Shown: positions 24,791 to 47,821 of the stretch, in pieces
Position numbering within the stretch: position 1 is the first letter of the stretch
Layout of the letters: every line of letters starts with the position of its first letter
Assembly: GCA_033439295.1 (NCBI GenBank)
Contig: JAVTLE010000021.1
Coordinates: forward strand, 744,009-808,008
Source of the DNA: Deuterostichococcus epilithicus
Taxonomy: Eukaryota; Chlorophyta; Trebouxiophyceae; Prasiolales; Stichococcaceae
DNA length: 64,000 bases
Direction: 5' to 3'
Notes under the pieces: model-generated
Told to the model about the DNA's origin: nothing
The model's input: only the letters and a program-made list of their open reading frames with translations
Database searches by the model: none
Position numbers and translations under genes: made by a program

Positions 24791-25429
24791 ATGAGCGTGC
24801 CAGCACTGGCATCAGCGGCGACAGTAGCAAAGTCCCCGACCAGCGCTGCCCTGCCTGCCCCAGAGGCGGCTGCTGCGCCGTCGTCTGCAGTGACAGCGGC
24901 CACGCAACCCCCCTTCTGGCCATCTGATGCACCTGCAGAGGCCAGCGCCGGTTCTGCTGCCGCCTTGACGACGCCAGGCGCTAATCTGGCCGCCACTGAA
25001 GAAGCAGCGGCAATAGCAAAACATTTCGACCATTCCCCAGCGGCGGAGGCGGCAGATGAGCGGCATGTGGCCGCTGTTGCGGGGGCCACAGGTCATGTGC
25101 GGCATGCAACTTGGGGCTCAGAGGCGTCCGCAGATGCGTCTCGGGCGGCTGCCTTCGATGAAGAGGGCCGCCTTGGCCAAGGCAGGGCAGCAGCTACAGC
25201 CCTGCAGGATGCCGGTGACGCGCCCAGCAGGGGGCTTGCAGCTGCAGGGTGGTCCAGCTCGGATACAGCATGCAGCAGCTTTGGCGACGAGCCGGCCTGC
25301 ACGCCGACAAGCGCGGAGGAGTCAGAGGCGGCAGAGTCGCTGGCAGGATGCTCGGAGCCGGGCGCGATCGGCAGCAGCAGGAAGCAGCTCATCTGGTTCA
25401 GGGCACTGCGCGAGGCGTGCACACAGCTT

Positions 25430-26856
25430 GTGCGCCCGGTGATGCTGTACGGTGTGGAGACTTGGGGGCCTGGGGCGCTGTGTGGCAAGGCAAGCGGCAT
25501 GGAGGCTTGTGAGAAAGTGCAGAGGAGCTTTTTGCGGGCTCTTCTTGGCGTGCGTGCAGGCACGCCCAAGGCGGCGCTACTCGGCGAGGCGGGCCGCTTT
25601 GAGGCGACGCACACAGCAGTGACGCTGATCTGCCGCTTCTGGAACCGGCTGGTGGACATGCCCGACACGCGGCTGACCAAGCAGGCCTTCCTCGAGAACG
25701 TCAGCATGGCCGGCTGCGGCGGCGGCATCCACTCGGCCTGCTGGGCAGCCCAGGTGGCCTCGTTCCTGGACTTCATGTCCCCCATTGTTGACGGTGTGCC
25801 GCAGCACATCGACCCTGACGCAGCCACAGCAGTGCTGCAGCGCCGACACTTTGAGTCGGTGAATGGTAGCGACGCCCGCAAGGTGCGCGAGGTGCTGCAG
25901 ATTCGGGGCCCTTTGGCTTTTGGTGCCTACGAACCAGCTATGTATCTGCAGGCGGTGGCCTCCAGGACCGGCCGTGTTCGGCTGGCGCAGTTTCGCACCG
26001 GCTCCCATTGGCCACGGGTGGAGACAGGGCGGTGGGCCGGTCTGCCGCGCGAGCAGCGCAGCTGTCAGCGCTGCGACAGCGGCGAGGTTGATGACGCAGA
26101 GCACATGCTCTGGGGGTGTTCTGCTCTGCTAGACCAGCGCCTCCAGCACGTGGAGCTGTTCAGCCGGGGCGACGCCACAGTCGAGGCGTTCATGCAGCAG
26201 GACCCTGCCAGCTTGGGGGTGTTTCTGCGGCATTGCGCCGATCGCTGCGCGGAGCTAGTGGGCTGGGGCTCGAGCTCTCAATGAGGCCTATCATCATCAT
26301 GCTTTCGAGGCAGAGGGCACCTTGCTGTCGGGACTTTTGGGGCCGGCATGGGGGTAGATGGAGAGTTCATTCTCTGTGTTTGGTTTTCGGAGTGGTGTGC
26401 CATAGCGCTCGCGGAATCCTGCAATGGGAGCGGCTAGCTCAGATGCCGGGGGCACTTCAGGCATGTTGCGCAGTCAGACATCCCGTAGCCTTGGCAGGGG
26501 GAGGTTAGGCTTAGCAGGTGTTTTTCAGTCCTTGGCTGTTGTGTTTGGTCTGCTTCCACCAGCATGCAGGGCGCCTCACGGCGTTTCCAGTCCAAGCGAG
26601 CCAGAGAGCTCGGCGCTTTGCGCGCAACTGGCCCTGTATGTTTGCACGGGGATTACTGGGTTTACCCGCGGGTGCTGTGGCACATGAGTCTATGACTGGA
26701 CATGGTTGCCGATGTCGTTTTGATCTGCTCGACGCCCTTTCCGTTTGTTCCCTCAGCATGTCGCTTGCTGTTGCGCATTCCGACCGCCTTCGGGCCTGTG
26801 CTATAGTCAGCCACTTGACTGCACAGTATGTAACCAAGTCCAAGTCCAAGTCCAAG
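25430..26856 (+). mobile_element. LINE copy, 5'-truncated, in an exon
   Basis: Contains the last 285 codons of LINE ORF2 (from VRPVMLYGVETWGP to GWGSSSQ and TGA at 26282-26284), the about 570-base 3' UTR, and a tail of AAGTCC hexamers ending at about 26856. The 5' junction shares CTTGTG with the element, so the exact edge is ambiguous by a few bases. The upstream host frame is open into the element by chance, giving an artificial fused frame of 559 codons. The 3' UTR is the Y variant (TCCAAGCGAGCC). Confidence 0.9.
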
Positions 26857-27434
26857 CCGGAGCCTGAGCCCCCGAAGCGGCCGCCGCAGCCCGCGTCGCC
26901 GGCGCTGTATCCGGCCAAGGACGGCACACCTGCAACCCGCCCTTGCATCCCGACTGCGCCGCCGCCACCACGGCGGCGGCTGCCAAATTCCATGGAGCTC
27001 GCTGCAATGGCAGCACTGGCAGCTGACCCAGCAATGCCTGCCGACATGTTCTCATCTGCGCACCGAGGACCGCCGCGAGGACAGTACAGCAGCTGGAGGG
27101 CTGCTGAGGCCGAGCCACGCTACGACATGCTGCACCAGCTCAGCAGCCTGCAGGGGCCATACACAATGGCGGACTGGCAGTGCGCCGACGCCTTCCAGCC
27201 TGACAATTTTTCTGCGGCTTCTCGTTTCTCCTCAAATCTTGCACACGCATTCTGTACATATTCATAAGCACACCCACCGTGATTGTGCACTGATTGCTCT
27301 TGCATCGCCAGCGTCAGCGATTTTCGGAACGTTAACGGGCTGTCAGCAGGTTTTTCGAAAATTTCCGCGCTCTTGTCAGCTTGCGCTTACGCACAACGTC
27401 CTGATTGCTCCACGCTTGCTGCTGCACTTGCATC

Positions 27435-28839
27435 ATGAGCACAGCCACGCGCTCACGCCGCCCTGACACGCTTTCTGTGCAGCTTGTGGCTGACTGTCGG
27501 TTGGCCACGTCAGCCAGCACCAGTCGCACAGATCTGCAGCGGTTAGCCAAGAAATACTCTGTCTCCGTGCGTCCAGGCGCATCGGAGGAGACGATTCGGG
27601 AGCAGCTTCGTCGCCACTTTGCATCGTCTGGCGTGGAGACGACAGCAGCCCCGGCAGCGGCAACCGCAGCAGACCTGCCTTCCTTCCCTGCCCCTCATGC
27701 CAGTGACGCATCGTCATCCCTGTCCTGCGCGCCTGCATCGCAGCCCCCCACGGAGCCACAGCAGCAGCCAGCCGCTCAGCAGCGGCTGCAGCAGGCTTCG
27801 GAGCGGCATGCCTCCGCATTGCAGAACCTGTCCGAGTCTAGCACGCACGTGTTCTCTAGTTCGCAGCCACCCTTCCACGCAGAGCTGGCTAGCTTGCTCG
27901 TGCGTGCCAGGAAGGCTGAGAATGAGGTGGCTCGCTTGCGCGCTCAGGTAGCGGCGAGTGACGCTGACAGGGTGCGCATTGTGGTGCAGGTGACGGAGGT
28001 CGTCAGCTTGACGGTGCATGTCGTGGAGGCGCCCGCGGCGAGCTACGGCGTTGCGCAGGCGGCTGGCCCCAAGCCCACAGCGGCGCTGGACGGGCCGCAC
28101 GCCCAGGCCATCTGCCGGGCAGCGCCGCCGACGCCGGCCTCAGGGCCGGCAGCCGCGGCCGCGGCTCCACCGCACAGCTCGCAGCTGCAGCAGCCAGCGT
28201 CAGCGCCACAGAGCCCCGATTGGGTCATCTCTGGACTCGACTTTGCCGCCGGCAGCAGCCGCGATGCAACGCACGCGGCAGTGGCAGATTTTGCCGCCGA
28301 GAACCTCGGCATGGCTGACGCAGCACCGCTCATCACGGTGCTGCGCGTCAGCGGGCACCGCGATGGCCTGGCGGTCATCCGGCTCGCGGACCGGTCTGTC
28401 GAGCGTGCGATGCGCAGCGCCAAGGCGCTGCTGCCGCACGACTGCCCCGTCAGCATCTACCGCAGCCTGCCGCCGCAGCAGCGCGGCGCCGCCGCAGCAG
28501 CGCGGCGCCGCCGCGCAGCTGCGACTAGCACGTCGCCAAGAGCAGCTGCTCACGCCGCAGGAGGTGGCGACCGCGCGCCGCGCGGCCAAGGCCGCGCTGG
28601 ACTTCGCCCGACAGCGCATCGCCGACCAGCGGCGCTCGCCGATTCACCGCGCTTTCCGCCCTCTTCCTGTTGCAGTCCCCCTGGGAGTGCCATCATTCTT
28701 CAGTGTCCTGCATGACGAGTCTGCACCCACTGCATCGCCGGACGTCCAGGCGCCGGCAGAGGGCTTTACCCCTCCGACGGCTGCGGCGGCCGCCGACCCC
28801 ACCACCATGCCTGCTGCTGCACGCATCGATGTCTGCTAG
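27435..28839 (+). pseudogene. LINE ORF1, RRM-like nucleic-acid-binding protein (frameshifted)
   Basis: ATG at 27435 opens MSTATRSRRPDTLSVQL. A helical segment (LARKAENEVARLRAQVAA) could form a coiled coil. A later segment (DWVISGLDF, LITVLRVSGHRDGLAVIRL, VERAMRSAKALLP, CPVSIYRSLPPQQR) has the layout of the RRM-like domain of L1-type ORF1 proteins, which coat the element RNA. A perfect 19-base tandem duplication (28472-28490 and 28491-28509) shifts the frame; the protein continues one phase over (RLARRQEQLLTPQEVATARR) to TAG at 28837-28839. Removing one unit restores one frame of about 460 codons. Confidence 0.7.
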
Positions 28840-29133
28840 GGGTGTTGGGGCCGGGCTGCGCCCGGCGCCGTCCGGTCCCCTCACAGCTCATTGTCCGTGT
28901 TGCACCTGAACGTCCATGGCTGGCTCTCAAGAAATGCGTTTGCTATCACGCAGGCCATCCAGGGAGCGGCCTACGACGTTCTGGTGTTCACGGAGACGTG
29001 GCTGCGGGAGGGCGCTGACGCGCCAGAGCTGGCAGGCTACACCGCCATCCTCAATCTGCCTCGGAGCCGAAAGCTTCAGCACGGCGGCACGCGAGGCGGC
29101 ATCGCCGTCTACGTCGCTGACGCGCTGGCACTA

Positions 29134-29568
29134 AGCGAGCCAGAGAGCTCGGCGCTTTGCGCGCAACTGGTCCTGTATGTCTGCGCGGGGTTTACTGGGT
29201 TTACCCGCGGGTGCTGTGGCACATGAGTCTATGACTGGACATGGTTGCCGATGTCGTTTTGATCTGCTCGACGCCCTTTCCGTTTGTTCCCTCAGCACGT
29301 CGCTTGCTGTTGCGCATTCCGACCGCCTTCGGGCCTGTGCTATAGTCAGCCACTTGACTGCACAGTATGTAACCAAGTCCAAGTCCAAGGTGCTGTGGCA
29401 CATGACTCTATGACTGGACATGGTTGCCGATGTCGTTTTGGTCTGCTCGACGCCCTTTCCGTTTGTTCCCTCAGCTTGTCGCTTGCTGTTGCGCATTCCG
29501 ACCGCCTTCGGGCCTGTGCTATAGTCAGCCACTTGACTGCACAGTATGTAACCAAGTCCAAGTCCAAG
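29134..29568 (+). mobile_element. Two tandem LINE 3'-end fragments inside the endonuclease ORF
   Basis: Unit 1 (29134-29389) starts at AGCGAGCCAGAGAG of the 3' UTR and unit 2 (29390-29568) starts at GTGCTGTGGCACATG. Both end in GTAACC plus AAGTCC repeats. They are not copies of each other (CATGAGTC versus CATGACTC; AGCACGTCG versus AGCTTGTCG). Deleting 29134-29568 plus a 2-base TA duplication restores the endonuclease frame (ADALALRKVTVLS). Confidence 0.85.
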
Positions 29569-30345
29569 TACGAAAGGTCACGGTGCTGTCGACAGGGCCA
29601 CAGGGCTGCTATGCCTTACTGCGTCTTGATGGCTGCATCGGGCAGGAGGAGGATGCATACATGTTTGCATGCTACATTCCGCCAGAGGGCAGCTCAGCAC
29701 TAGCTGGGAAGGGACCTGCGGTTTGGGAGGCATTGAGTGAGGAGGTCGGGGCCACCTCGCGCTTGGGTCATGTCTTTGTCATTGGGGACCTGAATGCACG
29801 CACAGCCACATTCCCGGATTTCCCGGGACCATCACTCACCCCATTCGGGAGCCTTTCCTGTCCACCGGCGCCGAGCCAGTGCGGTCGAAGCGACACAGTC
29901 GCGACCCGCTGGCGCGGCCAAACCTGTGGGGCACGGAGCTGCTCGATCTGTGCATCTCCACCAGCACGCGCATTGCTAACGGTCGTGTGTCGGGTGATGA
30001 GCAGGGACAGGTTACTTTTGTCAGCGAGAGTCAGGAGGGCAGCAGCCTCATCGACTATGTGCTGGCCAGCCCTGACGCCATGCCTCTCATTCAGTCTTTG
30101 CAGGTGATGCCGGCGCCAGAGTCGGACCACCTTGCTGTGGTCTTGCAGATAGAGCGTCGCTCCGCAGCCAGCCCGACCTCGCAACGGCGGCGCCCGCGCC
30201 GCCGGCCAGCAATGCCGCCGCCGCCGCCGGCTCCCGAGCCGCCGCGCCTTAAGACGGACGTGCAGCTGGCCGCATGGCAGGAGCTGCTGCGGCAGCCTGA
30301 CTCAGTCATGGATCTGTATCTGATGGAGGTTGCAGCTTGTACTGC

Positions 30346-30628
30346 CCACCACCCCCAAGTGGTAGGAAAACGGAAAAATACCCATGAGGTCGCGAGTTCG
30401 ATTCACGACTCATGCGGACAAAAAAAAAGGAGTGAATTGGATCATAGTCATACATATGACTGCCCTGCTTTCGCATTGCTTCGGCAATCACCCATCGCTG
30501 TCGATCACCTTCAGGTGACACTCCCCATCATCTCTTGGTTGTGTATATAAGTGGATTTAATTCCACTTTCACAACCAACCTTTCGGTCAAAGGTTCTTTC
30601 ACTTTCACGCTCCACCACCCCCCAAGTG
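30346..30628 (+). mobile_element. tRNA-derived SINE-like insertion with 16-bp target duplication
   Basis: CCACCACCCCCAAGTG at 30346-30361 recurs at 30612-30628 with one extra C. Removing the piece between them joins the ORF2 frame (EVAACTAHHPPSAATPADI). The insertion starts with pol III promoter-like boxes: AGTGGTAGGA (30358-30367, A-box-like) and GAGTTCGATTC (30394-30404, B-box-like), then an A8 run and an imperfect hairpin around 30535-30580 (TTGGTTGTG...CACAACCAA). No second copy is in the window, so family status is inference. Confidence 0.65.
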
Positions 30629-32687
30629 CCGCAACCCCGGCAGACATCCATGAGGCAGGACAGCAGTTCGACTCTTTCGTTGAGCGCACGCAGGCACAGG
30701 TGCTGGCGTCGCAGCCGGCCGCCGAGGGGCGGCGGCGCGGCGCCAAGGAGCAGCCAGACTGGTGGGACAAGGAGCTGGCCGACGGCCGGCGCGCAGCGCG
30801 GCAGGCCATGCGCAGCGATCCGCGTTCGCACGCGGCTCGCGCGGCGCGCGCTGAGTACCAGCGCGCGCTGCGGCGCAAGCTGAGCCGCTGGACGCGCAGC
30901 CAGGCCATCGCCCTCCTCACCCTGGCCCAGGCCAACCCGGCGCGCTGCTGGGGCAAATTCAAAGTTGCCAAGAAGCGTGTCTGCGCTGTGCCTGATGATG
31001 CCATGGCTGACTACTTTCGTGATCTGCTGGGGCAGCAGCCCGTCATCCCTTCTGATGTGCAAGAGGACCCGACAGCCGACGCCGGCGCCGCGCCACCAGC
31101 CGCAGATGGTTCCGAGTTGAATGTGCAGTTCACAGGTGCCTCTGTCACCAAGGGCATTGAGTCCCTGCATGGTGGCAAGTCAACTGTGGGTGTGCTTAAG
31201 CTTGATGCTCTCTCTGTTGCTGCTGCTGAGCTCGCGCCGTGTCTTGCTGCCGTCTTCAATGCTTGCCAGAGGGTGGGGGCGCTGCCGCGCGCTTGGGCGC
31301 TTTGCGGCATCACCCCCATCCACAAGGGTGGCGACGTTACTGACCCTGGCAACTACCGCGGCATCGCGGTGGGCTCTCTTTTAGCAAAGCTGTACGCTGC
31401 GATGCTCAACGAGAGGCTCATGGAGTGGACCGAGCGCCACGGGCTGCGTGCCCGCGGACAGGCTGGCTTCCGGAGGGACCACCGCACCACTGACCAGGTG
31501 TTTGTGCTCCGCACGCTCATTGAGCAAGCCCGTGCAGAAAAAAAGCCGTTGTATGTATGTTACGTTGACTTCAAAAAAGCATATGACAGCATTCCACGTG
31601 ACCTGCTGTGGCACAAACTGCAGCGCATCGGGGTGCATGGGGACTTCTTGCGGGCGGTGCAGGCTTTGTATGCGGAGGTGCCCATGGGGGTGCAGTTTGC
31701 TGACGGCATGTCTGCCACGTTCGTTTCCCTGCTAGGTGTCAAACAGGGCTGCCCACTTTCTCCAACCCTGTTTGGCATCTTCATTGATGACTTCCAGGCT
31801 GAGCTCGAAGCCGGCTCCGCCGGCTTCGCTCTTCCCACACTGTCCGGCGTGCAGACGCCGGCGCTCTTCTACGCGGACGACCTGGCACTGGTGTCCACCA
31901 CCGTCGCCGGCCTGCAGGCGCAGTTGGACCTCTTGCAGGCATACAGCAAACGCTGGCGGCTCACCGTCAACGTTAAGAAGACGAAGGTGGTGGTTTACAC
32001 CACCGCACGCGGCGCGGTGGCGGCGCCACAGCTCACCTACATGTCCGCCCCCATCGAGGTGCTTGACACGTTCAGGTACCTGGGGGTTGACCTGCACAGC
32101 ACGAAGCCATTTGCTTCGAGCGCAGCGGACCGGGCGGCGTCCGCCCGACGCGCCGCGCTCGCACTGCATAATCGCTGTCGTGATCTCGGGCTGCATGATC
32201 CTGCACTGCTCATGCATCTTTTTGACGCACTTGTGCGCCCGGTGATGCTGTACGGTGTGGAGACTTGGGGGCCTGGGGCGCTGTGTGGCAAGGCAAGCGG
32301 CATGGAGGCTTGTGAGAAAGTGCAGAGGAGCTTTTTGCGGGCTCTTCTTGGCGTGCGTGCAGGCACGCCCAAGGCGGCGCTACTCGGCGAGGCGGGCCGC
32401 TTTGAGGCGGCGCACACAGCAGTGACGCTGATCTGCCGCTTCTGGAACCGGCTGGTGGACATGCCTGACGCGCGGCTGACCAAGCAGGCGTTCCTCGAGA
32501 ACGTCAGCATGGCCGGCCGCGGCGGCGGCATCCACTCGGCCTGTTGGGCTGTCCAGGTGGCCTCGTTCCTGGACTGCATGTCCCCCATTGTTGACGGTGT
32601 GCCGCAGCACATCGACCCTGACGCAGCCACGGCGGTGCTGCAGCGCCGACACTTTCAGTCGGTGAATGGCAGCGATGCCCGCAAGGT

Positions 32688-34684
32688 CTGGACTTGGTTA
32701 CATACTGTGCAGTCAAGTGGCTGACTATAGCACAGGCCCGAAGGCGGTCGGAATGCGCAACAGCAAGCGACAAGCTGAGGGAACAAACGGAAAGGGCGTC
32801 GAGCAGACCAAAACGACATCGGCAACCATGTCCAGTCATAGAGTCATGTGCCATAGCACCTGCGGGTAAACCCAGTAAACCCCGCGCAGACATACAGGAC
32901 CAGTTGCGCACAAGGCGCCGAGCTCTCTGGCTCGCTGGGACCGGAAACGCCGTGAGGCGCCCTGCATGCTGGTGGAAGCAGACCAAACACAAAAGCCAAG
33001 GACTGAAAAACACACGCTAAGCCTGACCTCCCGCTGCCAAGGCTGCGGGATGTCTGACTGCGCAACATGCCTAAACTGCCCCCGGCACCTGAGCTAGCCG
33101 CTCCCATCGCAGGATTCCGCGAGCGCTATGGCACACCACTCCGAATCCCAAACACAGAAAATGAAATCGCCATCTACCCCCATGCCGACTCCAAAAGTCC
33201 CGACAGCAAGGTGCCCTCTGCCTCGAAAGCATGATGATGGTAGGCCTCATTGAGAGCTCGAGCCCAGCCCACTAGCTCCGCGCAGCGATCGGCGCAATGC
33301 CGCAGAAACACCCCCAAGCTGGCAGGGTCCTGTTGCATGAACGCATCGACTGTGGCGTCGCCCCGGCTGAACAACTCCACGTGCTGGAGGCGCTGGTCTA
33401 GCAGAGCAGAACACCCCCAGAGCATGTGCTCTGCGTCATCAACCTCGCCGCTGTCGCAGCGCTGACAGCTGCGCTGCTCGCGCGGCAGACCGGCCCACCG
33501 CCCTGTCTCCACCCGCAGCCAATGGGAGCCGGTGCGAAACTGCGCCAGCCGAACACGGCCGGTCCTGGAGGCCACCGCCTGCAGATACATAGCTGGTTCG
33601 TAGGCACCAAAAGCCAGAGGGCCCCGAATCTGCAGCCACTCGCGTACCTTGCGGGCGTCGCTGCCATTCACCGACTGAAAGTGTCGGCGCTGCAGCACCG
33701 CCGTGGCTGCGTCAGGGTCGATGTGCTGCGGCACACCGTCAACAATGGGGGACATGAAGTCCAGGAACGAGGCCACCTGGACAGCCCAACAGGCCGAGTG
33801 GATGCCGCCGCCGCGGCCGGCCATGCTGACGTTCTCGAGGAACGCCTGCTTGGTCAGCCGCGCGTCAGGCATGTCCACCAGCCGGTTCCAGAAGCGGCAG
33901 ATCAGCGTCACTGCTGTGTGCGCCGCCTCAAAGCGGCCCGCCTCGCCGAGTAGCGCCGCCTTGGGCGTGCCTGCACGCACGCCAAGAAGAGCCCGCAAAA
34001 AGCTCCTCTGCACTTTCTCACAAGCCTCCATGCCGCTGGCCTTGCCACACAGCGCCCCAGGCCCCCAAGTCTCCACACCGTACAGCATCACCGGGCGCAC
34101 AAGTGCGTCAAAAAGATGCATGAGCAGTGCAGGATCATGCAGCCCGAGATCACGACAGCGATTATGCAGTGCGAGCGCGGCGCGTCGGGCGGACGCCGCC
34201 CGGTCCGCTGCGCTCGAAGCAAGTGGCTTCGTGCTGTGCAGGTCAACCCCCAGGTACCTGAACGTGTCAAGCACCTCGATGGGGGCGGACATGTAGGTGA
34301 GCTGTGGCGCCGCCACCGCGCCGCGTGCGGTGGTGTAAACCACCACCTTCGTCTTCTTAACGTTGACGGTGAGCCGCCAGCGTTTGCTGTATGCCTGCAA
34401 GAGGTCCAACTGCGCCTGCAGGCCGGCGACGGTGGTGGACACCAGTGCCAGGTCGTCCGCGTAGAAGAGCGCCGGCGTCTGCACGCCGGACAGTGTGGGA
34501 AGAGCGAAGCCGGCTCCGCCGGCTTCGAGCTCAGCCTGGAAGTCATCAATGAAGATGCCAAACAGGGTTGGAGAAATTGGGCAGCCCTGTTTGACACCTA
34601 GCAGGGAAACGAACGTGGCAGACATGCCGTCAGCAAACTGCACCCCCATGGGCACCTCCGCATACAAAGCCTGCACCGCCCGCA
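32688..34684 (-). mobile_element. Nested LINE copy, reverse orientation, 5'-truncated
   Basis: Starts at its 3' tail (GGACTTGG) and runs backwards through the X-variant 3' UTR into an intact 503-codon C-terminal part of ORF2 (33174-34685, from the reverse transcriptase FLRAVQALYAEVPMG through YADD and the CCHC motif to the stop). It is flanked by AAGGT on both sides (32683-32687 and 34685-34689) and splits the host LINE ORF2 exactly there: NGSDARKV before, REWLQIRGPLAFGAYEP after. A simple nested insertion explains this junction fully. Confidence 0.9.
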
Positions 34685-36323
34685 AAGGTACGCGAGTGGC
34701 TGCAGATTCGGGGCCCTTTGGCTTTTGGTGCCTACGAACCAGCTATGTATCTGCAGGCGGTGGCCTCCAGGACCGGCCGCTTTCGGCTGGCGCAGTTTTG
34801 CACCGGCTCCCATTGGCTGCGGGTGGAGACAGGGCGGTGGGCCGGCCTGCCGCGCGAGCAGCGCAGCTGTCAGCGCTGCGACAGCGGCGAGGTTGATGAC
34901 GCAGAGCACATGCTCTGGGGGTGTTCTGCTCTGCTAGACCAGCGCCTCCAGCACGTGGAGCTGTTCAGCCGGGGCGACGCCACAGTCGAGGCGTTCATGC
35001 AGCAGGACCCTGCCAGCTTGGGGGTGTTTCTGCGGCATTGCGCCGATCGCTGCGCGGAGCTAGTGGGCTGGGGCTCGAGCTCTCAATGAGGCCTATCATC
35101 ATCATGCTTTCGAGGCAGAGGGCACCTTGCTGTCGGGACTTTCGGGGCCGGCATGGGGGTAGATGGCAATTTCATTCTCTGGGTTTGGGTTTCGGAGTGG
35201 TGTGCCATAGCGCTCGCGGAATCCTGCAATGGGAGCGGCTAGCTCAGATGCCGGGGGCACTTTAGGCATGTTGCGCAGTCAGACATCCCGTAGCCTTGGC
35301 AGGGGGAGGTTAGGCTTAGCAGGTGTTTTTCAGTCCTTGGCTGTTGTGTTTGGTCTGCTTCCACCAGCATGCAGGGCGCCTCACGGCGTTTCCTGTCCAA
35401 GCGAGCCAGAGAGCTCGGCGCTTTGCGCGCAACTGGCCCTGTATGTTTGCACGGGGTTTACTGGGTTTACCCGCGGGTGCTGTGGCACATGACTCTATGA
35501 CTGGACATGGTTGCCGATGTCGTTTTGGTCTGCTCGACGCCCTTTCCGTTTGTTCCCTCAGCTTGTCGCTTGCTGTTGCGCATTCCGACCGCCTTCGGGC
35601 CTGTGCTATAGTCAGCCACTTGACTGCACAGTATGTAACCAAGTCCAAGTCCAAGTCCAAGTCCACTTGCGGCCAGAGCCAGCACGATCCGCATGCACCC
35701 TACACAGGCGCCAGAAACTTCCAGGCGCCAACAGGCGGCGGCACGCAGCAGCACCAAGCCAGTGCGGCAGGCATGCCTTCCGGCGACTGGCCAGCAGGCG
35801 TCCTATGCTGTGCTCTGCAGCAGATGCACTCGCCTGCGCCGCCCATGCATGCGAGAGCCGCCGTGCAGCCGTCGCGCCCCACTCGCAGCTACCCCATTCG
35901 TCCGCCACCAGACATCTTCGAGGACATCCCGCGGCCCCCGCCGCGGTCAGTTCAGCGGCGGCCGCCAGCACGCCGCCCAGCGAAACTAGGCCACAGCTGC
36001 GGCCGGCGCCGTTCCCATCTTCCGGAGCAGCGCCATCCGCCCCGCCGCTGATGGCAGCCGAAGGCCACATCGACCACCCTGCCGCCGCTGCTGGCACAGC
36101 TGCCGCCGCCCCAACTCACACTGCGGAGGCCGGGACCAGGCCACCTGCCTCCATGTGGGGCAGTGCTGCTGCCGCTGCTCTTGCTGACGCCGCCGACCGC
36201 CGTCAGGCTGCGCAGCAAGGGTTTCTTGGCTGGCAGCCCTCTGCCACACTGCCGCCAGGCTTCCCATCTTGGGAGCTATACTATGCCACAAAGCCCAAGC
36301 AGGAGATGAGCCAGCCACCAGAA

Positions 36324-38050
36324 GGACTTGGACTTGGTTACATACTGTGCAGTCAAGTGGCTGACTATAGGACAGGCCCGAAGGCGGTCGGAATGCGCAA
36401 CAGCAAGCGACAAGCTGAGGGAACAAACGGAAAGGGCGTCGAGCAGACCAAAACGACATCGGCAACCATGTCCAGTCATAGAGTCATGTGCCATAGCACC
36501 TGCGGGTAAACCCAGTAAACCCCGCGCAGACATACAGGACCAGCTGCGCACAAGGCACCGAGCTCTCTGGCTCGCTGGGACCGGAAACGCCGTGAGGCGC
36601 CCTGCATGCTGGTGGAAGCAGACCAAACACAAAAGCCAAGGACTGAAAAACACACGCTAAGCCTGACCTCCCGCTGCCAAGGCTGCGGGATGTCTGACTG
36701 CGCAACATGCCTAAACTGCCCCCGGCACCTGAGCTAGCCGCTCCCATCGCAGGATTCCGCGAGCGCTATGGCACACCACTCCGAATCCCAAACACAGCGA
36801 ATGAAATCGCCATCTACCCCCATGTCAGGGCATGCCCCAACCACACAGAATCAAGGACACAGTAGAAATGATAAGTGTCGTGATGTTCGGTGCCAACAAA
36901 CCAGTAGAAGCATACATTATGCACATGTCTGAACCTTTCTGCATAGATAGTGTAGATGATATAACGTTCGAAAGCGAGATGAAACTGATAGTTGGGTTTT
37001 TTAATTTAGTGAAAGAAAAAGACCCAACAGTTGTGACAGGGTTCAATATATACGGTTTTGATATGCACTACTTGGTGTCAAGGTTGAAGCTGAGGCTCGT
37101 AGAAATACCTCCAGCGCACAGAGGGACATCTGGCACTGTAGATGTTATAAAGGTAGACTGGAGCAGCGACGCATATGGCCACAACAGCTACGATAGATTG
37201 GTTATCGGAGGGAGAGTCATAGTGGACATGTACCTGTATTTCAAGAGAATAAAGTTAGACAAGTACAGCCTTGATTTTGTGTCTGATAAGTTCATAGGTG
37301 AAGGAAAAAACGACATGCCGTACAAAGAAATGGCTGCCGCCTTCGTGTCCGATGATCACGCTGCTCTCCGTAAGGTTGCGCAGTATTGTGTGCAAGATTC
37401 TGTACTGGTCATGAAGCTGTTCGAAAAAGTCCAGATGTGGATTGACATGTGTGAAATATCAAAAATAACCAGGTGTGGCATTGAAGACATATACACAAGA
37501 GGAGAACAAATGAAAATGGTATCACAGTGTGTTGCAGAGTGCGAAAGGAGAAACATTGTATTGCAACCACAGCGCCCCTCAAATTGGAAGCAGTATGAGG
37601 GAGCATACGTGCTAGAGCCTACAAAAGGAGTTTACGACGGGTGTTCAATAGTGGACTTTCAATCTCTATATCCCTCCATCATAATCGCGTATAACATATG
37701 TCCGTCCACTTACACAACGCATGCAAAAGTCCCGACAGCAAGGTGCCCTCTGCCTCGAAAGCATGATGATGGTAGGCCTCATTGAGAGTCCGAGCCCAAG
37801 CCCTCTAGCTCCGCGCAGCGATCGGCGCAATGCCGCAGAAACACCCCCAAGCTGGCAGGGTCCTGTTGCATGAACGCCTCGACCGTGGCGTCGCCCCGGC
37901 TGAACAACTCCACGTGCTGGAGGCGCTGGTCTAGCAGAGCAGAACACCCCCAGAGCATGTGCTCTGCGTCATCAACCTCGCCGCTGTCGCAGCGCTGACA
38001 GCTGCGCTGCTCGCGCGGCAAACCGGCCCACCGCCCTGTCTCCACCCGCA
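36324..38050 (-). mobile_element. LINE arm, reverse orientation (head-to-head pair B, left arm)
   Basis: The tail (GGACTTGGACTTGG) is at the left, followed by an X-variant 3' UTR to 36826, a foreign 897-bp block (36827-37723), the rest of the 3' UTR and the C-terminal part of ORF2 to the HRLH...Zn-motif region, ending at 38050. There it meets the plus-strand arm with two filler bases. AGAAGG at 36320-36325 and 39674-39679 brackets the whole pair as a short putative target duplication. Confidence 0.85.
36827..37723 (+). pseudogene. Family B DNA polymerase fragment, large-DNA-virus-like
   Basis: An open frame from ATG 36832 gives 297 residues before it runs into LINE sequence. It contains the exonuclease II motif (TGFNIYGFD, residues 69-77), exonuclease III (YCVQDS, 185-190) and the start of polymerase motif A (DFQSLYPSIII, 275-285). 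Exo I lies before the left edge, and motifs B and C (YGDTDS) are missing beyond the right edge, so it is an internal fragment. Composition is clearly AT-richer than all host and LINE DNA around it. Insertion-poor spacing and TRGEQMKM/KLDKYSLDFVSDKFIG-type segments suggest an algal nucleocytoplasmic large DNA virus or a relative, rather than the cell's own delta polymerase; I cannot place it to a family. It cannot encode an active enzyme. Confidence 0.75.
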
Positions 38051-38052
38051 GA

Positions 38053-39675
38053 AGCTCACCTACATGTCCGCCCCCATCGAGGTGCTTGACACGTTCAGGT
38101 ACCTGGGGGTTGACCTGCACAGCACGAAGCCATTTGCGTCGAGCGCAGCGGACCGGGCGGCGTCCGCCCGACGCGCCGCGCTCGCACTGCATAATCGCTG
38201 TCGTGATCTCAGGCTGCATGATCCTGCACTGCTCACGCATCTCTTTGATGCACTTGTGCGCCCGGTGATGCTGTACGGTGTGGAGACTTGGGGGCCTGGG
38301 GCGCTGTGTGGCAAGGCAAGCGGCATGGAGGCTTGTGAGAAAGTGCAGAGGAGCTTTTTGCGGGCTCTTCTTGGCGTGCGTGCAGGCACGCCCAAGGCGG
38401 CGCTACTCGGCGAGGCGGGCCGCTTTGAGGCGACGCACACAGCAGTGACGCTGATCTGCCGCTTCTGGAACCGGCTGGTGGACATGCCCGACACGCGGCT
38501 GACCAAGCAGGCCTTCCTCGAGAACGTCAGCATGGCCGGCCGCGGCGGCGGCATCCACTCGGCCTGCTGGGCAGCCCAGGTGGCCTCGTTCCTGGACTTC
38601 ATGTCCCCCATTGTTGACGGTGTGCCGCAGCACATCGACCCTGACGCAGCCACAGCAGTGCTGCAGCGCCGACACTTTGAGTCGGTGAATGGTAGCGACG
38701 CCCGCAAGGTGCGCGAGTGGCTGCAGATTCGGGGCCCTCTGGCTTTTGGTGCCTACGAACCAGCTATGTATCTGCAGGCGGTGGCCTCCAGGACCGGCCG
38801 TGTTCGGCTGGCGCAGTTTCGCACCGGCTCCCATTGGCTGCGGGTGGAGACAGGGCGGTGGGCCGGTCTGCCGCGCGAGCAGCGCAGCTGTCAGCGCTGC
38901 GACAGCGGCGAGGTTGATGACGCAGAGCACATGCTCTGGGGGTGTTCTGCTCTGCTAGACCAGCGCCTCCAGCACGTGGAGCTGTTCAGCCGGGGCGACG
39001 CCACAGTCGAGGCGTTCATGCAGCAGGACCCTGCCAGCTTGGGGGTGTTTCTGCGGCATTGCGCCGATCGCTGCGCGGAGCTAGTGGGCTGGGGCTCGAG
39101 CTCTCAATGAGGCCTATCATCATCATGCTTTCGAGGCAGAGGGCACCTTGCTGTCGGGACTTTTGGGGCCGGCATGGGGGTAGATGGAGAGTTCATTCTC
39201 TGTGTTTGGTTTTCGGAGTGGTGTGCCATAGCGCTCGCGGAATCCTGCAATGGGAGCGGCTAGCTCAGATGCCGGGGGCACTTTAGGCATGTTGCGCAGT
39301 CAGACATCCCGTAGCCTTGGCAGGGGGAGGTTAGGCTTAGCAGGTGTTTTTCAGTCCTCGGCTGTTGTGTTTGGTCTGCTTCCACCAGCATGCAGGGCGC
39401 CTCACGGCGTTTCCAGTCCAAGCGAGCCAGAGAGCTCGGCGCTTTGCGCGCAACTGGCCTGTATGTTTGCACGGGGTTTACTGGGTTTACCCGCGGGTGC
39501 TGTGGCACATGACTCTATGACTGGACATGGTTGCCGATGTCGTTTTGGTCTGCTCGACGCCCTTTCCGTTTGTTCCCTCAGCATGTCGCTTGCTGTTGCG
39601 CATTCCGACCGCCTTCGGGCCTGTGATATAGTCAGCCACTTGACTGCACAGTATGTAACCAAGTCCAAGTCCAAG
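38053..39675 (+). mobile_element. LINE arm, forward orientation (pair B, right arm)
   Basis: Begins inside ORF2 at LTYMSAPIEVLDTFRYLGVDLHS, keeps an open frame to TGA at 39108-39110 (about 350 codons: C-terminal domain plus CCHC-type motif), then a Y-variant 3' UTR and an AAGTCC tail ending at 39675. Immediately after comes host sequence AAGGTGAGC, an exon-intron boundary. Confidence 0.9.
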
Positions 39676-42541
39676 AAGGTGAGCGCCTTCGCAACCTACG
39701 ATTGCTTTCTGCAACAGCAGTTTATTTTGCAGTGAATGTCACAGTTTGCTTATGTTATTAGATAAGCAAGATGTGTGTGAGCACTTCACGTAGCTGGCGG
39801 GCAATCTGGAACCTTCCCTGCCTCACAGGCGCCATTGCTGCGCCACCTGTTCCCGTGCCAGTAGTTCCTGCGGCCCAAGATCTGCTTCCTGTCGCCTTTG
39901 ACCCGGCTGCTGAAACTGCCACATCTGTGATCGCGTTCGTTACGCCTACAGAGGTCACAGGGGCAAATCCGCCGCTCATGCGCTGCGAAACCTGCTCTGG
40001 GTCTACGACGTCCGAGGCCGCTGCATGGATACACCTGAAGGCGAGTAAGACAGGAAGGCTCAGGCGCTATTGAGGCCAGTGCCGTCTGAAGATCTGCTCT
40101 GCAGCTTGCGCGATTTGCCTCAGGCCAGTCCAAAGCCTGGTGTGTGCACAGTGTGTAGCGGCATTTGCTGGACTCTTGCTGTCGACACCACCTCTGCTTT
40201 TGATATGGTTGAATTGCTCTGACAGTGACCTGAGAGGGTTGGTGCAGTGCTTGCTGCACTACAGAGCCCACTGCTGTGACTTGTCTGTAGAGCGTGGAGC
40301 ATGAGGAAGCATGCTGGCATGGCCACATTGTCTGCGGCGCCTGTGGCGTCGTGTCCGGCTTAGAGGAGGTGCTGCCGCACCGGCAGTCCTCGCAGCACAG
40401 CGCGCAGGTTGGTTCCATTTTGAAATTGCACACATGGGTGCTGCAGGCGGCCGACATCTTCGGTGGTCTCGGATGCCTGCTGGCAGTGTTTGGCGAGAAG
40501 GAGCTATATTGAGCTCCCTGTTGCATGGCAGAGCTGCTGGTGTGCAAAGCAAACCGTCCTGTGACGGATGGCCGGCCTAATTGCATGGCAGGTCGCCTGG
40601 CTGCGAGGCCGGCCATCCCAGAGCAGCACGAACCTTGCAGCTGCTCAGGTGCAGCAGGCAAGCGCACAAATACCACAGTCAGCACAGCCGCTCGTCGCCG
40701 CTGCCTCGGCTACCAGCGTGCGCGCCGGCCACCCAGTGGAGGCAAGACGCACAAACTCAAACGTAGTTGCCGCAGGCGGCCGCGGCATTCAGCCAGGGCC
40801 TGCAGCTTCAGCGCACAATCCCAGGCTGGCTGCCATGCCAGACTCATTTCGCCCGCCTCCACAGCCTGAGGTGTTCGACACAAGGCAGCAGACAGCGCAG
40901 GCCAAGGCAGCGGCGCAAGCAGCACTGCAGCACGCCCGCAGAGTGGTGAAGCTGCCCTCGCACCCAGCCGGGCGGCAGGGTCCGCCGCAAGCAGCAGGTG
41001 CCACCGCCAGTCCAGGCCAGCAGGACAGCGCACCTGGGCCGCACACACCACCGAATTCTGCCGCAGAAGCTGCGACTGCGCCAGCCTCGCGGGCCGCGGC
41101 AGAGAGCCCGGTCGGCGGCGCAGGTGCTCCCGACACTGCCGGGGCTGCCAAGACAGGGCGCAGCCGTGGCCGGGCGGGCGTCCGTGTACAGGCACGCAAG
41201 GCGGCAATGGCTCAGCAGCTAGCGAAAGAGCTGACGGAGTGCGGCATCTGCAGCTGGCACGGCACCACTGAGCATGAGGCCTCCAACCACTATCAGGTGG
41301 AGCAGCACTTTGATGGACGATTTAATTACTGATAAGCTTGCGAGCTGGCAGATCCCGCTTGCCGCATCAATGGAGCTGCCTTTCACGTACTCACAGCAGC
41401 TCTATGCCGTATGAAAGTGCGGCCAGCAACCCTACCCTAACCCTTGCAACAAATATGTTGAAGGTCCGACCGTCGCTGCACCGCTGAGCACGCAGCCTGA
41501 ACTGAGCTACAGTCGCGCATGCATGATGCAGTAGCTTGTGCGTGGATGCACCAAATTGGGCGGGCAGCTCGTCTGTGGCGGCTGATGTAAATGCCGCTCT
41601 GTTGGTGCACGCAGAGAGCGAGGAGCACACAGCAGCATGCGCGGCAGCCGGACCGTCGGCCTGCACCGCCTGTGGGGTGCTGCCGGCGTCGCTGAGCGCC
41701 CTGGAGGCGCACCAGGTGGGGCGGCGGCATGCTGCCAGGGTCGCCTGGCTGCGGGAGCAGGCATGCCGGTCCAGGCCAGCTGCTGCAGCGCGGCCGCAGG
41801 CTGCAGGTGATATGCTGTCCGCACTCTCACTCACGATAATGCATAGATTCTTATTGATGCATCGAGATTACACCAATCCCACTCCTCGTGCCCTCTCTTT
41901 CGAGCCGTGTGAAAAATAGCGGTGCAGAGTAGTGGCAAGCGCCATGGTGCTGCTGGCGTCGGCAGCTTGAACGGTCTGATTCGTTCAATTAGCCCTGCAG
42001 GCGCAAAGGACACAGAGCAGCACTACTGCGAGCTGTGTGCAACAATCTTGAGACACGGCACGACATACTCGGTGCGATGCCCTGATAGACTCTGAGGTTT
42101 GTAGCCCTCGAAAAATATGCCCTCTGTATGTGTGTGGGGGCCTGGCGCCAGGTGCAGCTGCATTTCCAGCAGTTGCAATGTTTCAACAAACCGATTGGCG
42201 CCGGCACCAGGGCCTTTGTCAACTGGTGAATGTCTGAAACTGTGCGAAGACTGATGATTGAGTGATGCTGACGTGTAGCAACACGAGCAAAGTCGCAAAC
42301 ACCATGCGGAGGCAGGCAAGTTCAAGAAGCGCTACCCCAACACGCCGCTCCCGGGCTGGACCCTGGTGGGCGGTGCTGGCACAGCAGCGTCCGGGTCACG
42401 GCCGGCATCGAAGGCTGCTGCGAGCAGCGTCGGCAGGCACAGGCAGGCGCCTGCAGACCGCCAACGGGCGGCATCGCTATCACCTCCGCCAGGGCTGCTT
42501 GCCTCAGCCTGTCAGCGGCGCTGATGCTGCGGCACAGCTTA

Positions 42542-43031
42542 GACTTGGACTTGGACTTAATTACATACTGTGCAGTCAAGTGGCTGACTATAGCACAGGC
42601 CCGAAGGCGGTCGGAATGCGCAACAGCAAGCAACAAGCTGAGGGAACAAACGGAAAGGGCGTCGAGCAGATCAAAACGACATCGGCAACCATGTCCAGTC
42701 ATAGAGTCATGTGCCACAGCACCCGCGGGTAAACCCAGTAAACCCCGTGCAGACATACAGGGCCAGTTGCGCGCAAAGCGCCGAGCTCTCTGGCTCGCTT
42801 GGACTGGAAACGCCGTGAGGCGCCCTGCATGCTGGTGGAAGCAGACCAAACACAACAGCCAAGGACTGAGAAACACCTGCTAAGCCTAACCTCCCCCTGC
42901 CAAGGCTACGGGATGTCTGACTGCGCAACATGCCTAAAGTGCCCCCGGCATCTGAGCTAGCCGCTCCCATCGCAGGAACGCCTCGACTGTGGCGTCGCCC
43001 CGGCTGAACAGCTCCACGTGCTGGAGGCGCT
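42542..43031 (-). mobile_element. LINE arm, reverse orientation (pair C, left arm)
   Basis: The tail (GACTTGGACTTGGACTT) lies 18 bases after the zinc finger gene stop. The Y-variant 3' UTR runs to about 42976, then jumps by an internal deletion of about 0.4 kb into ORF2 C-terminal sequence (CGCCTCGACTGTGGCGTC) and ends at GGCGCTGG, where the next arm starts. Confidence 0.85.
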
Positions 43032-44741
43032 GGCGGCTCACCGTCAACGTTAAGAAGACGCAGGTGGTGGTTTACACCACCGCACGCGGCGCGGTGGCGG
43101 CGCCACAGCTCACCTACATGTCCGCCCCCATCGAGGTGCTTGACACGTTCAGGTACCTGGGGGTTGACCTGCACAGCACGAAGCCATTTGCTTCGAGCGC
43201 AGCGGACCGGGCGGCGTCCGCCCGACGCGCCGCGCTCGCACTGCATAATCGCTGTCGTGATCTCGGGCTGCATGATCCTGCACTGCTCATGCATCTTTTT
43301 GACGCACTTGTGCGCCCGGTGATGCTGTACGGTGTGGAGACTTGGGGGCCTGGGGCGCTGTGTGGCAAGGCCAGCGGCATGGAGGCTTGTGAGAAGAAAG
43401 TGCAGAGGAGCTTTTTGCGGGCTCTTCTTGGCGTGCGTGCAGGCACGCCCAAGGCGGCGCTACTCGGCGAGGCGGGCCGCTTTGAGGCGGCGCACACAGC
43501 AGTGACGCTGATCTGCCGCTTCTGGAACCGACTAGTGGACATGCCTGACGCGCGGCTGACCAAGCAGGCCTTCCTCGAGAACGTCAGCATGGCCGGCCGC
43601 GGCGGCGGCATCCACTCGGCCTGTTGGGCTGCCCAGGTGGCCTCGTTCCTGAACTTCATGTCCCCCATTGTCGACGGTGTGCCGCAGCACATCGACCCTG
43701 ACGCAGCCACGGCGGTGCTGCAGCGCCGACACTTTCAGTCGGTGAATGGCAGCGACGCCCGCAAGGTACGCGAGTGGCTGCAGATTCGGGGCCCTCTGGC
43801 TTTTGGTGCCTACGAACAAGCTATGTATCTGCAGACGGTGGCCTCCAGGACCGGCCGCGTTCGGCTGGCGCAGTTTCGCACCGGCTCCCATTGGCTGCGG
43901 GTGGAGACAGGGCGGTGGGCCGGTCTGCCGCGCGAGCAGCGCAGCTGTCAGCGCTGCGACAGCGGCGAGGTTGATGACGCAGAGCATTTGCTCTGGGGGT
44001 GTTCTGCTCTGCTAGACCAGCGCCTCCAGCACGTGGAGCTGTTCAGCCGGGGCGACGCCACGGTCGAGGCGTTCATGCAACAGGACCCTGCCAGCTTGGA
44101 GGTGTTTCTGCGGCATTGCGCCGATCGCTGCGCGGAGCTAGAGGGCTTGGGCTCGGACTCTCAATGAGGCCTACCATCATCATGCTTTCGAGGCAGAGGG
44201 CACCTTGCTGTCGGGACTTTTGGAGTCGACATGGGGGTAGATGGCGATTTCATTTTCTGTGTTTGGGTTTCGGAGTGGTGTGCCATAGCGCTCGCGGAAT
44301 CCTGCGATGGGAGCGGCTAGCTCAGGTGCCGGGGGCACTTTAGGCATGTTGCGCAGTCACACATCCCGCAGCCTTGGCAGCGGGAGGTCAGGCTTAGCGT
44401 GTGTTTTTCAGTCCTTGGCTTTTGTGTTTGGTCTGCTTCCACCAGCATGCAGGGCGCCTCACGGCGTTTCCGGTCCCAGCGAGCCAGAGAGCTCGGCGCC
44501 TTGTGCGCAACTGGTCCTGTATGTCTGCGCGGGGTTTACTGGGTTTACCCGCAGGTGCTATGGCACATGACTGTATGACTGGACATGGACTGGACATGGT
44601 TGCCGATGTCGTTTTGGTCTGCTCGACGCCCTTTCCGTTTGTTCCCTCAGCTTGTCGCTTGCTGTTGCGCATTCCGACCGCCTTCGGGCCTGTGCTATAG
44701 TCAGCCACTTGACTGCACAGTTTGTAACCAAGTCCAAGTCC
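43027..44741 (+). mobile_element. LINE arm, forward orientation (pair C, right arm)
   Basis: Shares CGCTGG with the left arm at the junction, then an open ORF2 C-terminal part (RLTVNVKKTQVVVYTTARG onwards, stop at 44165-44167) and an X-variant 3' UTR (GGTCCCAGCGAGCC; CAGTTTGTAACC) with a short AAGTCC tail. A codon insertion (CEKKVQRS versus CEKVQRS) distinguishes this copy. A duplicated GACTGGACAT occurs near 44580. Confidence 0.9.
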
Positions 44742-44756
44742 AGCTGGTCTAGCAGA

Positions 44757-45752
44757 GCTGACTATAGCACAGGCCCGAAGGCGGTCGGAATGCGCAACAG
44801 CAAGCGACATGCTGAGGGAACAAACGGAAAGGGCGTCGAGCAGATCGAAACGACATCGGCAACCATGTCCAGTCATAGAGTCATGTGCCACAGCACCCGC
44901 GGGTAAACCCAGTAAACCCCGCGCAGACATACAGGGCCAGTTGCGCGCAAAGCGCCGAGCTCTCTGGCTCGCTTGGACAGGAAACGCCGTGAGGCGCCCT
45001 GCATGCTGGTGGAAGCAGACCAAACACAACAGCCAAGGACTGAAAAACACCTGCTAAGCCTAACCTCCCCCTGCCAAGGCTACGGGATGTCTGACTGCGC
45101 AACATGCCTAAAGTGCCCCCGGCATCTGAGCTAGCCGCTCCCATCGCAGGATTCCGCGAGCGCTATGGCACACCACTCCGAAACCCAAACCCAGAGAATG
45201 AAATTGCCATCTACCCCCATGCCGGCCCCGAAAGTCCCGACAGCAAGGTGCCCTCTGCCTCGAAAGCATGATGATGATAGGCCTCATTGAGAGCTCGCGC
45301 CCCAGCCCACTAGCTCCGCGCAGCGATCGGCGCAATGCCGCAGAAACACCCGCAAGCTGGCAGGGTCCTGCTGCATGAACGCCTCGACTGTGGCGTCGCC
45401 CCGGCTGTACAGCTCCACGTGCTGGAGGCGCTGGTCTAGCAGAGCAGAACACCCCCAGAGCATGTGCTCTGCGTCATCAAACTCGCCGCTGTCGCAGCGC
45501 TGACAGCTGCGCTGCTCGCGCGGCAGACCGGCCCACCGCCCTGTCTCCACCCGCAGCCAATGGGAGCCGGTGCGAAACTGCGCCAGCCGAACACGGCCGG
45601 TCCTGGAGGCCACCGCCTGCAGATACATAGCTGGTTCGTAGGCACCAAAAGCCAAGGGGCCCCGAATCTGCAGCCACTCACGTACCTTGCGGGCATCGCT
45701 GCCATTCACCCACTCAAAGTGTCGGCGCTGCAGCACCGCCGTGGCTGCGTCA
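44757..45752 (-). mobile_element. LINE arm, reverse orientation (pair D, left arm, tail lost)
   Basis: Starts 30 or so bases inside the 3' end (CTGACTATAGCAC); the tail is missing and about 15 bases of LINE-derived filler (CTGGTCTAGCAGA) separate it from pair C. Y-variant 3' UTR and ORF2 C-terminus follow, ending near 45752. Confidence 0.85.
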
Positions 45753-45756
45753 GGCG

Positions 45757-47821
45757 CCATTCCACAAGACCTGCTGTGGCACAAACTGCAACGCATCGGG
45801 GTGCATGGGGACTTCTTGCGGGCGGTGCAGGCTTTGTATGCGGAGGTGCCCATGGGGGTGCAGTTTGCTGACGGCATGTCTGCCACGTTCGAGTCCCTGC
45901 TAGGTGTGAAACAGGGCTGCCCACTTTCTCCAACCCTGTTTGGCATCTTCATTGATGACTTCCAGGCTGAGCTCGAAGCCGGCTCCGCCGGCTTCGCCCT
46001 TCCCACACTGTCCGGCGTGCAGACGCCGGCACTCTTCTACGCGGACGACCTGGCACTGGTGTCCACCACCGTCGCCGGCCTGCAGGCGCAGCTGGACCTC
46101 TTGCAGGCCTTCAGCAAGCGTTGACGGCTCACCGTCAACGTCAAGAAGACGAAGGTGGTGGTGTACACCACCGCGCGCGGCGCGGTGGCGGCGCCACAGC
46201 TCACCTACATGTCCGCCCCCATCGAGGTGCTTGACACGTTCAGGTACCTGGGGGTTGACCTGCACAGCACGAAGCCATTTGCGTCGAGCGCAGCGGACCG
46301 GGCGGCGTCCGCCCGACGCGCCGCGCTCGCACTGCATAATCGCTGTCGTGATCTCGGGCTGCATGATCCTGCACTGCTCATGCATCTCTTTGAAGCACTT
46401 GTGCGCCCGGTGATGCTGTACGGTGTGGAGACTTGGGGGCCTGGGGCACTGTGTGGCAGGGCCAGCGGCATGGAGGCTTGTGAGAAAGTGCAGAGGAGCT
46501 TCTTGCGGGCTCTTCTTGGCGTGCGTGCAGGCACGCCCAAGGCGGCGCTGCTCGGCGAGGCGGGCTGCTTTGAGGCGACGCACACAGCAGTGACGCTGAT
46601 CTGCCGCTTCTGGAACCGGCTGGTGGACATGCTCGACACGCGGCTCACCAAGCAGGCGTTCCTCGAGAACGTCAGCATGGCCGGCCGCGGCGGCGGCATC
46701 CACTCGGCCTGCTGGGCTGCCCAGGTGGCCTCGTTCCTGGACTTCATGGCCCCCATTGTTGACGGTGTGCCGCAGCACATCGACCCTGACGCAGCCACGG
46801 CGGTGCTGCAGCGCCGACACTTTCAGTCGGTGAATGGCAGCGACGCCCGCAAGGTACGCGAGTGGCTGCAGATTCGGGGCCCTCTGGCTTTTGGTGCCTA
46901 CGAACCAGCTATGTATCTGCAGGCGGTGGCCTCCAGGACCGGCCGCGTTCGGCTGGCGCAGTTTCGCACCGGCTCCCATTGGCTGCGGGTGGAGACAGGG
47001 CGGTGGGCCGGTCTGCCGCGCGAGCAGCGCAGCTGTCAGCGCTGCGACAGCGGCGAGGTTGATGACGCAGAGCATATGCTCTGGGGGTGTTCTGCTCTGC
47101 TAGACCAGCGCCTCCAGCACGTGGAGCTGTTCAGCCGGGGCGACGCCACAGTCGAGGCGTTCATGCAGCAGGACCCTGCCAGCTTGCGGGTGTTTCTGCG
47201 GCATTGCGCCGATCGCTGCGCGGAGCTAGTGGGCTGGGGCTCGAGCTCTCAATGAGGCCTATCATCATCATGCTTTCGAGGCAGAGGGCACCTTGCTGTC
47301 GGGACTTTCGGGGTCGGCATGGGGTTAGATGGCGATTTCATTTTCTGTGTTTGGGTTTCGGAGTGGTGTGCCATAGCGCTCGCGGAATCCTGCGACGGGA
47401 GCGGCTAACTCAGATGCCGGGGGCACTTTAGGCATGTTGCGCAGTCAGACATCCCGCAGCCTTGGCAGCGGGAGGTTAGGCCTAGCAGGTGTTTTTCAGT
47501 CCTTGGCTTTTGTGTTTGGTCTGCTTCCACCAGCATGCAGGGCGCCTCACGGCGTTTCCGGTCCCAGCGAGCCAGAGAGCTCGGTGCCTTGTGCGCAACT
47601 GGTCCTGTACGTCTGCGCGGGGTTTACTGGGTTTACCCTGGGTGCTGTGGCACATGACTCTATGACTGGACATGGTTGCCGATGTCGTTTTGGTCTGCTC
47701 GACGCCCTTTCCGTTTGTTCCCTCAGCTTGTCGCTTGCTGTTGCGCATTCCGACCGCCTTTCGGGCCTGTGCTATAGTCAGCCACTTGACTGCACAGTTT
47801 GTAACCAAGTCCAAGTCCAAG
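45757..47821 (+). mobile_element. LINE arm, forward orientation (pair D, right arm)
   Basis: Begins in the reverse transcriptase (PQDLLWHKLQRIGVHGDF), includes GVKQGCPLSPTLFG and YADD. It has a nonsense TGA at 46122-46124 where the other copies read TGG (KRWRLTV), then is open from 46155 to the stop at 47253-47255. X-variant 3' UTR, CAGTTTGTAACC and an AAGTCC tail end at 47821. A small deletion after GGGTTTACC (47635) distinguishes it. Confidence 0.9.

What the first reader, a model, noticed from the sequence alone, without database searches (positions are those of the whole stretch)
36827..37723. Fragment of a virus-like family B DNA polymerase captured inside a LINE 3' UTR
897 bp of AT-richer DNA, with exonuclease II, III and polymerase motif A in one open frame, splits a LINE arm. 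The LINE reads CATGTC on the left and CAAAAG on the right; only five bases (GACTC) of the LINE are lost and there is no target duplication, so it looks like DNA patched in during break repair rather than transposition. It may record a past large-DNA-virus infection of the alga.
Basis: partly seen in the sequence, partly recalled or inferred. Interest (0 to 1): 0.75.

Follow-up and report, generated by a model that had tools for sequence, protein, structure and literature searches.

The report
Viral polymerase scrap in algal centromere-like LINE
An 897-base piece of a DNA polymerase gene, 94% identical in protein to one from an uncultured source that is probably a giant virus, sits inside a mobile element in a likely centromere of an alga; it was probably patched in when a broken chromosome was rejoined, and it would tie an otherwise hostless virus group to algae.

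Summary
Window 36827-37723 is an 897-bp, 43% GC segment in a 62% GC window. It carries one open frame with exonuclease motifs II and III and polymerase motif A. It splits the 3' UTR of a minus-strand LINE copy, 55 bp past the LINE stop codon. A sister LINE copy in the window shows the unfilled site: only GACTC is lost, with no target duplication and no tail.

The protein is not the alga's own: 79 of 245 residues match the host delta polymerase, 277 of 296 (94%) match P0115, a 1163-aa polymerase from an unnamed metagenomic source. In a 132-row tree the fragment groups with P0115 and P0120 (SH-aLRT 98). A neighbouring clade holds proteins from fungal genomes and a virus contig with RPB1, TFIIS, UDG and a VETFS-like helicase.

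New here: the scored LINE matches form one cluster per contig on 16 of 21 contigs, like the Zepp/ZeppL clusters at green-algal centromeres. Searches found no other piece of this polymerase and no match to four viral marker families (two of those lacked a working control).

Likely mechanism: end-joining capture of stray viral DNA. It is an endogenous viral element of a known kind, at an unusual site and from a little-known clade.

The parts
36827..37723 (+). Inserted fragment of a virus-type family B DNA polymerase gene (residues about 170-470 of P0115)
   Evidence: Pfam PF03104 and PF00136; 277 of 296 residues identical to P0115; 92% over P0115 169-470
36805..37785 (+). Open frame of 326 codons stop to stop through the fragment and a little LINE sequence on both sides; first in-viral-frame ATG at 36832
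37045..37062 (+). Exonuclease motif II (NIYGFD)
   Evidence: motif name recalled
37384..37401 (+). Exonuclease motif III (YCVQDS)
   Evidence: motif name recalled
37654..37683 (+). Polymerase motif A (DFQSLYPSII)
   Evidence: motif name recalled
36324..36826 (-). 3' UTR arm of the split LINE copy (left of the insert)
   Evidence: repeat arms
37724..38051 (-). Other arm of the same 5'-truncated LINE copy: end of its reading frame, stop codon 37779-37781, first 55 bp of 3' UTR
43895..44588 (-). Sister LINE copy with the unfilled site (CATGTC-GACTC-CAAAAG at 44211-44242)
33172..33203 (+). Unfilled junction in another nearby LINE copy (CATGCCGACTCCAAAAG)
   Evidence: arms 98.6% and 97.9% identical
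25427..47830 (.). Cluster of nested and truncated LINE copies, probably the centromere of this chromosome
   Evidence: self-comparison, tblastn with a LINE protein; one cluster per contig; centromere inferred
28897..32703 (+). Longest LINE copy of the cluster, with endonuclease and reverse transcriptase parts
   Evidence: RVT_1 E 5.3e-31; tblastn with P0134, which carries PF03372 and PF00078

Best explanation
An 897-bp internal piece of a virus-type family B DNA polymerase gene splits the 3' UTR of one LINE copy, and it was likely captured there as stray viral DNA when a chromosome break in a probably centromeric LINE cluster was closed by end joining. Shown: the sequence, its single copy in the searches made, the five-base LINE deletion, the absence of duplication and tail, the 94% protein match to an uncultured polymerase, and the one-cluster-per-contig LINE distribution. 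Inferred: a relative of the P0115 source infected, or at least left DNA in, an ancestor of this alga; its DNA was broken up; one fragment was ligated between the two ends of a break in the LINE after five bases had been trimmed. The fragment lacks exo motif I and polymerase motifs B and C and lies antisense to the LINE, so it is predicted to be an inert fossil. It must be younger than the LINE copy that it splits.
For: Exact arms and five-base loss against the sister copy; 48 unfilled copies; domains; identity to P0115 277 of 296 against 79 of 245 for host delta; tree support 98 for the fragment with P0115 and P0120; GC 0.432 against 0.618; the P0115 search of the genome finds only this piece besides one weak 48% match at C19; virus contig of a neighbouring clade with RPB1, TFIIS, UDG and a VETFS-like helicase; LINE clusters one per contig on 16 contigs as at known algal centromeres.
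Against: No reads were available, so a chimeric assembly is not excluded. The DNA around P0115 and P0120 could not be read: that they are giant-virus proteins rests on a neighbouring clade. Four viral marker families gave no match in the genome, so there is no second viral gene to back the infection. Close viral contigs were not found in four of five scans, and the fifth gave only 22-28% matches (one search gave L063 and L064). The clade's own tree position is from a quick search with long-branch warnings.
Confidence: 0.8

Rival explanations
1. The fragment is the last remnant of a larger endogenous giant-virus region that was eroded by deletions.
For: Large endogenous regions are known in algae and fungi (PMC12455990, listing; PMC10640383, passages).
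Against: The two LINE arms are co-linear with only five bases missing, so deletions would have had to stop within five bases of both LINE edges; no other viral gene was found near or elsewhere (two of them without a working control).
Confidence: 0.06
2. A viral mRNA was copied into the chromosome by the LINE machinery.
For: The site is inside a LINE cluster whose elements encode endonuclease and reverse transcriptase.
Against: No tail and no target-site duplication; instead five bases are lost. The piece is internal to the gene at both ends.
Confidence: 0.04
3. The join is an assembly chimera with contaminating viral DNA.
For: The repeat cluster is hard to assemble; the fragment is single-copy; no reads were seen.
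Against: Two false joins would have to fall five bases apart in one LINE copy, with both arms continuing as the same copy.
Confidence: 0.08
4. It is an exon of the alga's own family B polymerase or a pseudogene of it.
For: It belongs to the same superfamily; among solved structures yeast delta scores best.
Against: 32% identity to host delta and 31% to yeast delta against 94% to P0115; tree.
Confidence: 0.01

Closest known systems
Endogenous Nucleocytoviricota elements in algae and fungi: Euglena gracilis (PMC12455990, listing with start of abstract) and the 1.5-Mb region of Rhizophagus irregularis (PMC10640383, passages)
   Same: Large-DNA-virus type polB in the nuclear genome of a eukaryote.
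   Different: Those are long multi-gene regions; here one 897-bp piece of one gene, in a LINE, with both scars readable.
Zepp clusters of Coccomyxa subellipsoidea (PMC3446292, passages) and ZeppL clusters of Chlamydomonas (PMC8226300, passages), LINEs with one cluster per chromosome at putative centromeres
   Same: Nested LINE copies with endonuclease and reverse transcriptase, one cluster per contig in the scored matches.
   Different: Not placed on a tree with Zepp or ZeppL here; no CENH3 data; this copy carries a viral insert.
Filler DNA captured at double-strand breaks by end joining, such as organelle DNA pieces in nuclear chromosomes (recalled, not looked up)
   Same: Small target deletion, no duplication, internal piece of a source gene.
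   Different: The source is of viral type.

Membership tests
Endogenous viral element of a large DNA virus | Protein groups with virus-type sequences and apart from the host's cellular gene | tested here: met
   277 of 296 to P0115, 79 of 245 to host delta; tree
Endogenous viral element of a large DNA virus | Close relatives lie on contigs with other virus genes | tested here: inconclusive
   Shown for L063/L086 of a neighbouring clade only; contigs of P0115 and P0120 not readable
Endogenous viral element of a large DNA virus | Physically joined to host DNA on both sides | tested here: met
   LINE arms of a 3.58-Mb contig on both sides in the assembly; reads not available
Giant endogenous viral element (long multi-gene region) | Many virus genes in one region | tested here: not met
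   897 bp between LINE arms; four marker families without a match in the genome (controls silent in 33 and 34)
Zepp/ZeppL centromeric LINE cluster | One cluster per chromosome | tested here: met
   81 scored matches on 16 of 21 contigs, one cluster each, at most 19.7 kb from first to last (only the 40 best of 146 and 126 candidates were scored per search)
Zepp/ZeppL centromeric LINE cluster | LINE with endonuclease and reverse transcriptase | tested here: met
   RVT_1 in two frames; tblastn with P0134, which has PF03372 and PF00078
Zepp/ZeppL centromeric LINE cluster | Groups with Zepp or ZeppL in a tree | not tested
   No named reference sequence was at hand
Zepp/ZeppL centromeric LINE cluster | CENH3 binding | not testable with these tools
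   Needs ChIP-seq
LINE-mediated retrocopy | Target-site duplication and 3' tail | tested here: not met
   Five-base deletion, no tail

The most novel reading that the evidence does not exclude
The centromeric LINE cluster works as an archive of viral DNA: scraps captured there are copied into small RNAs together with the silenced LINEs and guard the alga against a still circulating virus, whose polymerase is 94% like the scrap.
Probability: 0.04. Interest if true: 0.85.

Novelty: new member of a known kind. Interest (0 to 1): 0.42.

Why it matters
The polymerase clade around P0115 is known here only from unnamed metagenomic proteins, and a neighbouring clade turns up in fungal genomes. A fragment fixed in an algal chromosome would give that clade a host and at least one past contact, which can be tested by reading the P0115 contig. 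It also suggests that centromere-like LINE clusters can keep captured virus DNA with both scars readable, so that the repair event can be studied. Two paper searches with words for giant virus, endogenous elements, integration and centromere (12 of 21 papers listed, 10 of 11 listed; titles and abstract starts only) showed no such case, which is weak evidence that it is unreported.

Tried and rejected
Own delta polymerase: rejected at 32% identity. Phage polymerase: the 20 listed of 2430 records are at 27-31%, no DNA match. Retrotransposition: no tail or duplication. Close viral contigs: five scans of the viral collection; searches found none, one search found L063 (52%) and L064 (34%), one search found 14 distant loci (22-28%), which I did not use. 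VLTF3 in the records of L063 and L064: 0 of 2, so it gave no positive control. Papers on the fungal relatives: searches gave 0 papers each. CATG stands at the left LINE edge and near both ends of the insert; I considered a restriction cut, but CATG also occurs at five other places inside and the viral DNA beyond the ends is unknown, so I dropped it. A programmed frameshift or an intron after CPSTYT (P0001, P0002 and P0004 leave the common reading soon after it) was dropped because P0115 and P0120 read through. The unique stretch 39690-42530 has no second copy and normal GC; not identified.

Full report
What is there. Window 36827-37723 is an 897-bp segment of 43% GC in a 62% GC window. It reads as one open frame on the plus strand and matches the Pfam family B exonuclease and polymerase domains, with exo II, exo III and motif A. 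Exo I and motifs B and C are absent: the alignment to P0115 starts at residue 169, after its FDIE, and stops at residue 470, before motifs B and C (motif names recalled).

The scar. The segment splits a LINE copy on the minus strand whose 5'-truncated body runs from about 38051 to 36324. The LINE stop codon is at 37779-37781, so the split lies 55 bp into the 3' UTR. The best comparison is a sister copy at 43895-44588 of the same window, which shares the variant CATGTC: it reads CATGTC-GACTC-CAAAAG where the split copy reads CATGTC-insert-CAAAAG. Five bases are lost, none is duplicated and there is no tail. The aligned arms are 96.0% identical to the sister over 473 columns (8 mismatches, 11 gap positions) and 98.5% over 328, and 98.6% and 97.9% to the copy around 33.2 kb. 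A loose junction pattern found 48 distinct unfilled places in 61 fetched loci. The insert is therefore younger than the LINE copy that it splits.

Whose polymerase. A protein search with the fragment gave 12 proteins among 413 candidates; one with the polymerase of L063 gave 604 among 5802, of which 120 are listed. I aligned those 120, 7 of the 12 (P0001-P0007; P0008-P0012 left out before alignment), L063, L064, the alga's own delta polymerase (six exon pieces) and a yeast delta segment with the fragment: 132 rows. P0115 is identical at 277 of 296 positions, P0120 at 268, P0094 at 241, host delta at 79 of 245, yeast delta at 84 of 274. The tree groups the fragment with P0115 and P0120 (SH-aLRT 98) inside an 80-row clade (98); the two cellular sequences stand apart (99). 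It is a quick tree without bootstrap, and it warns of long branches, L064 above all.

Which virus. A neighbouring 34-row clade holds records from Mortierella, Linnemannia and Podila and the viral contig L063; Bifiguratus and Ramaria records fall in two other groups, and the order of these groups is not resolved. L063 and its second piece L086 encode polB, a helicase that matches the poxvirus VETFS chain at 8.6e-15, RPB1 domains, TFIIS and uracil-DNA glycosylase. That set is typical of Nucleocytoviricota (recalled). PMC10640383 (passages) cites earlier work on such polymerase genes in basal fungi. The virus family could not be named with these tools.

Where it sits. The LINE arms match 41 and 40 scored places (the best of 146 and 126 candidates) on 16 of 21 contigs, one cluster per contig and at most 19.7 kb from first to last. 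The genome has 46.8 Mb and 39 chlorophyll-binding domain matches. In Coccomyxa and Chlamydomonas such LINE clusters lie at putative centromeres (PMC3446292, PMC8226300, PMC11005252; passages); PMC11005252 also reports green algae whose centromeres hold other elements. The cluster in this window spans about 25.4-47.8 kb. That it is the centromere is an inference from distribution.

Is there more virus? Searches of the genome with the fragment, with P0115 and with PF00136 found this fragment and matches at four other loci on C7 and C19 that look like the host's own family B polymerases. Four marker families gave no match. For PF04451 and PF04947 no control genome rang, so those two are uninformative; for PF04665 and PF08706 controls rang.

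Mechanism. The internal piece, the small deletion and the lack of duplication or tail fit capture of a DNA fragment during end joining of a break. The source DNA beyond the ends is unknown, so microhomology cannot be judged. The remaining doubts are the missing reads and the unread neighbourhood of P0115.

Verdict. The find is an endogenous viral element of a known kind, made more interesting by its site and by the clade that it would tie to an alga.

Noticed in passing
window 39690-42530: A 2.84-kb stretch inside the LINE cluster has no second copy in the genome search, GC 0.61, and is not LINE by tblastn; unidentified.
   Followed up: partly
proteins P0115, P0120, P0094, P0096: These relatives carry a long insertion between YGDS and NTDS of motif C that looks like an intein; other relatives in the list bear the intein domain PF14890. 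It lies outside the captured piece.
   Followed up: no
proteins P0001, P0002, P0004: Three relatives leave the common reading soon after CPSTY, close to where the captured piece ends; cause unknown (frameshift, error or pseudogene).
   Followed up: no
G000 C6 338933-341840 and C19 750860-760399: LINE arm matches recur at regular spacing (579 bp on part of C6; about 921 and 1195 bp in alternation on C19), as in tandem arrays of LINE pieces.
   Followed up: no
window 36310-36345 and 35639-35665: The LINE 3' end shows short CCAAGT repeats and no poly(A).
   Followed up: no
L086 3-3047: The virus contig of the neighbouring clade encodes a frame of at least 1014 aa with a mannose-binding lectin domain (PF01453), next to RPB1.
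   Followed up: no
G000 C2: A 14.7-kb unplaced contig carries the same LINE, probably a piece of a cluster that was not placed.
   Followed up: no
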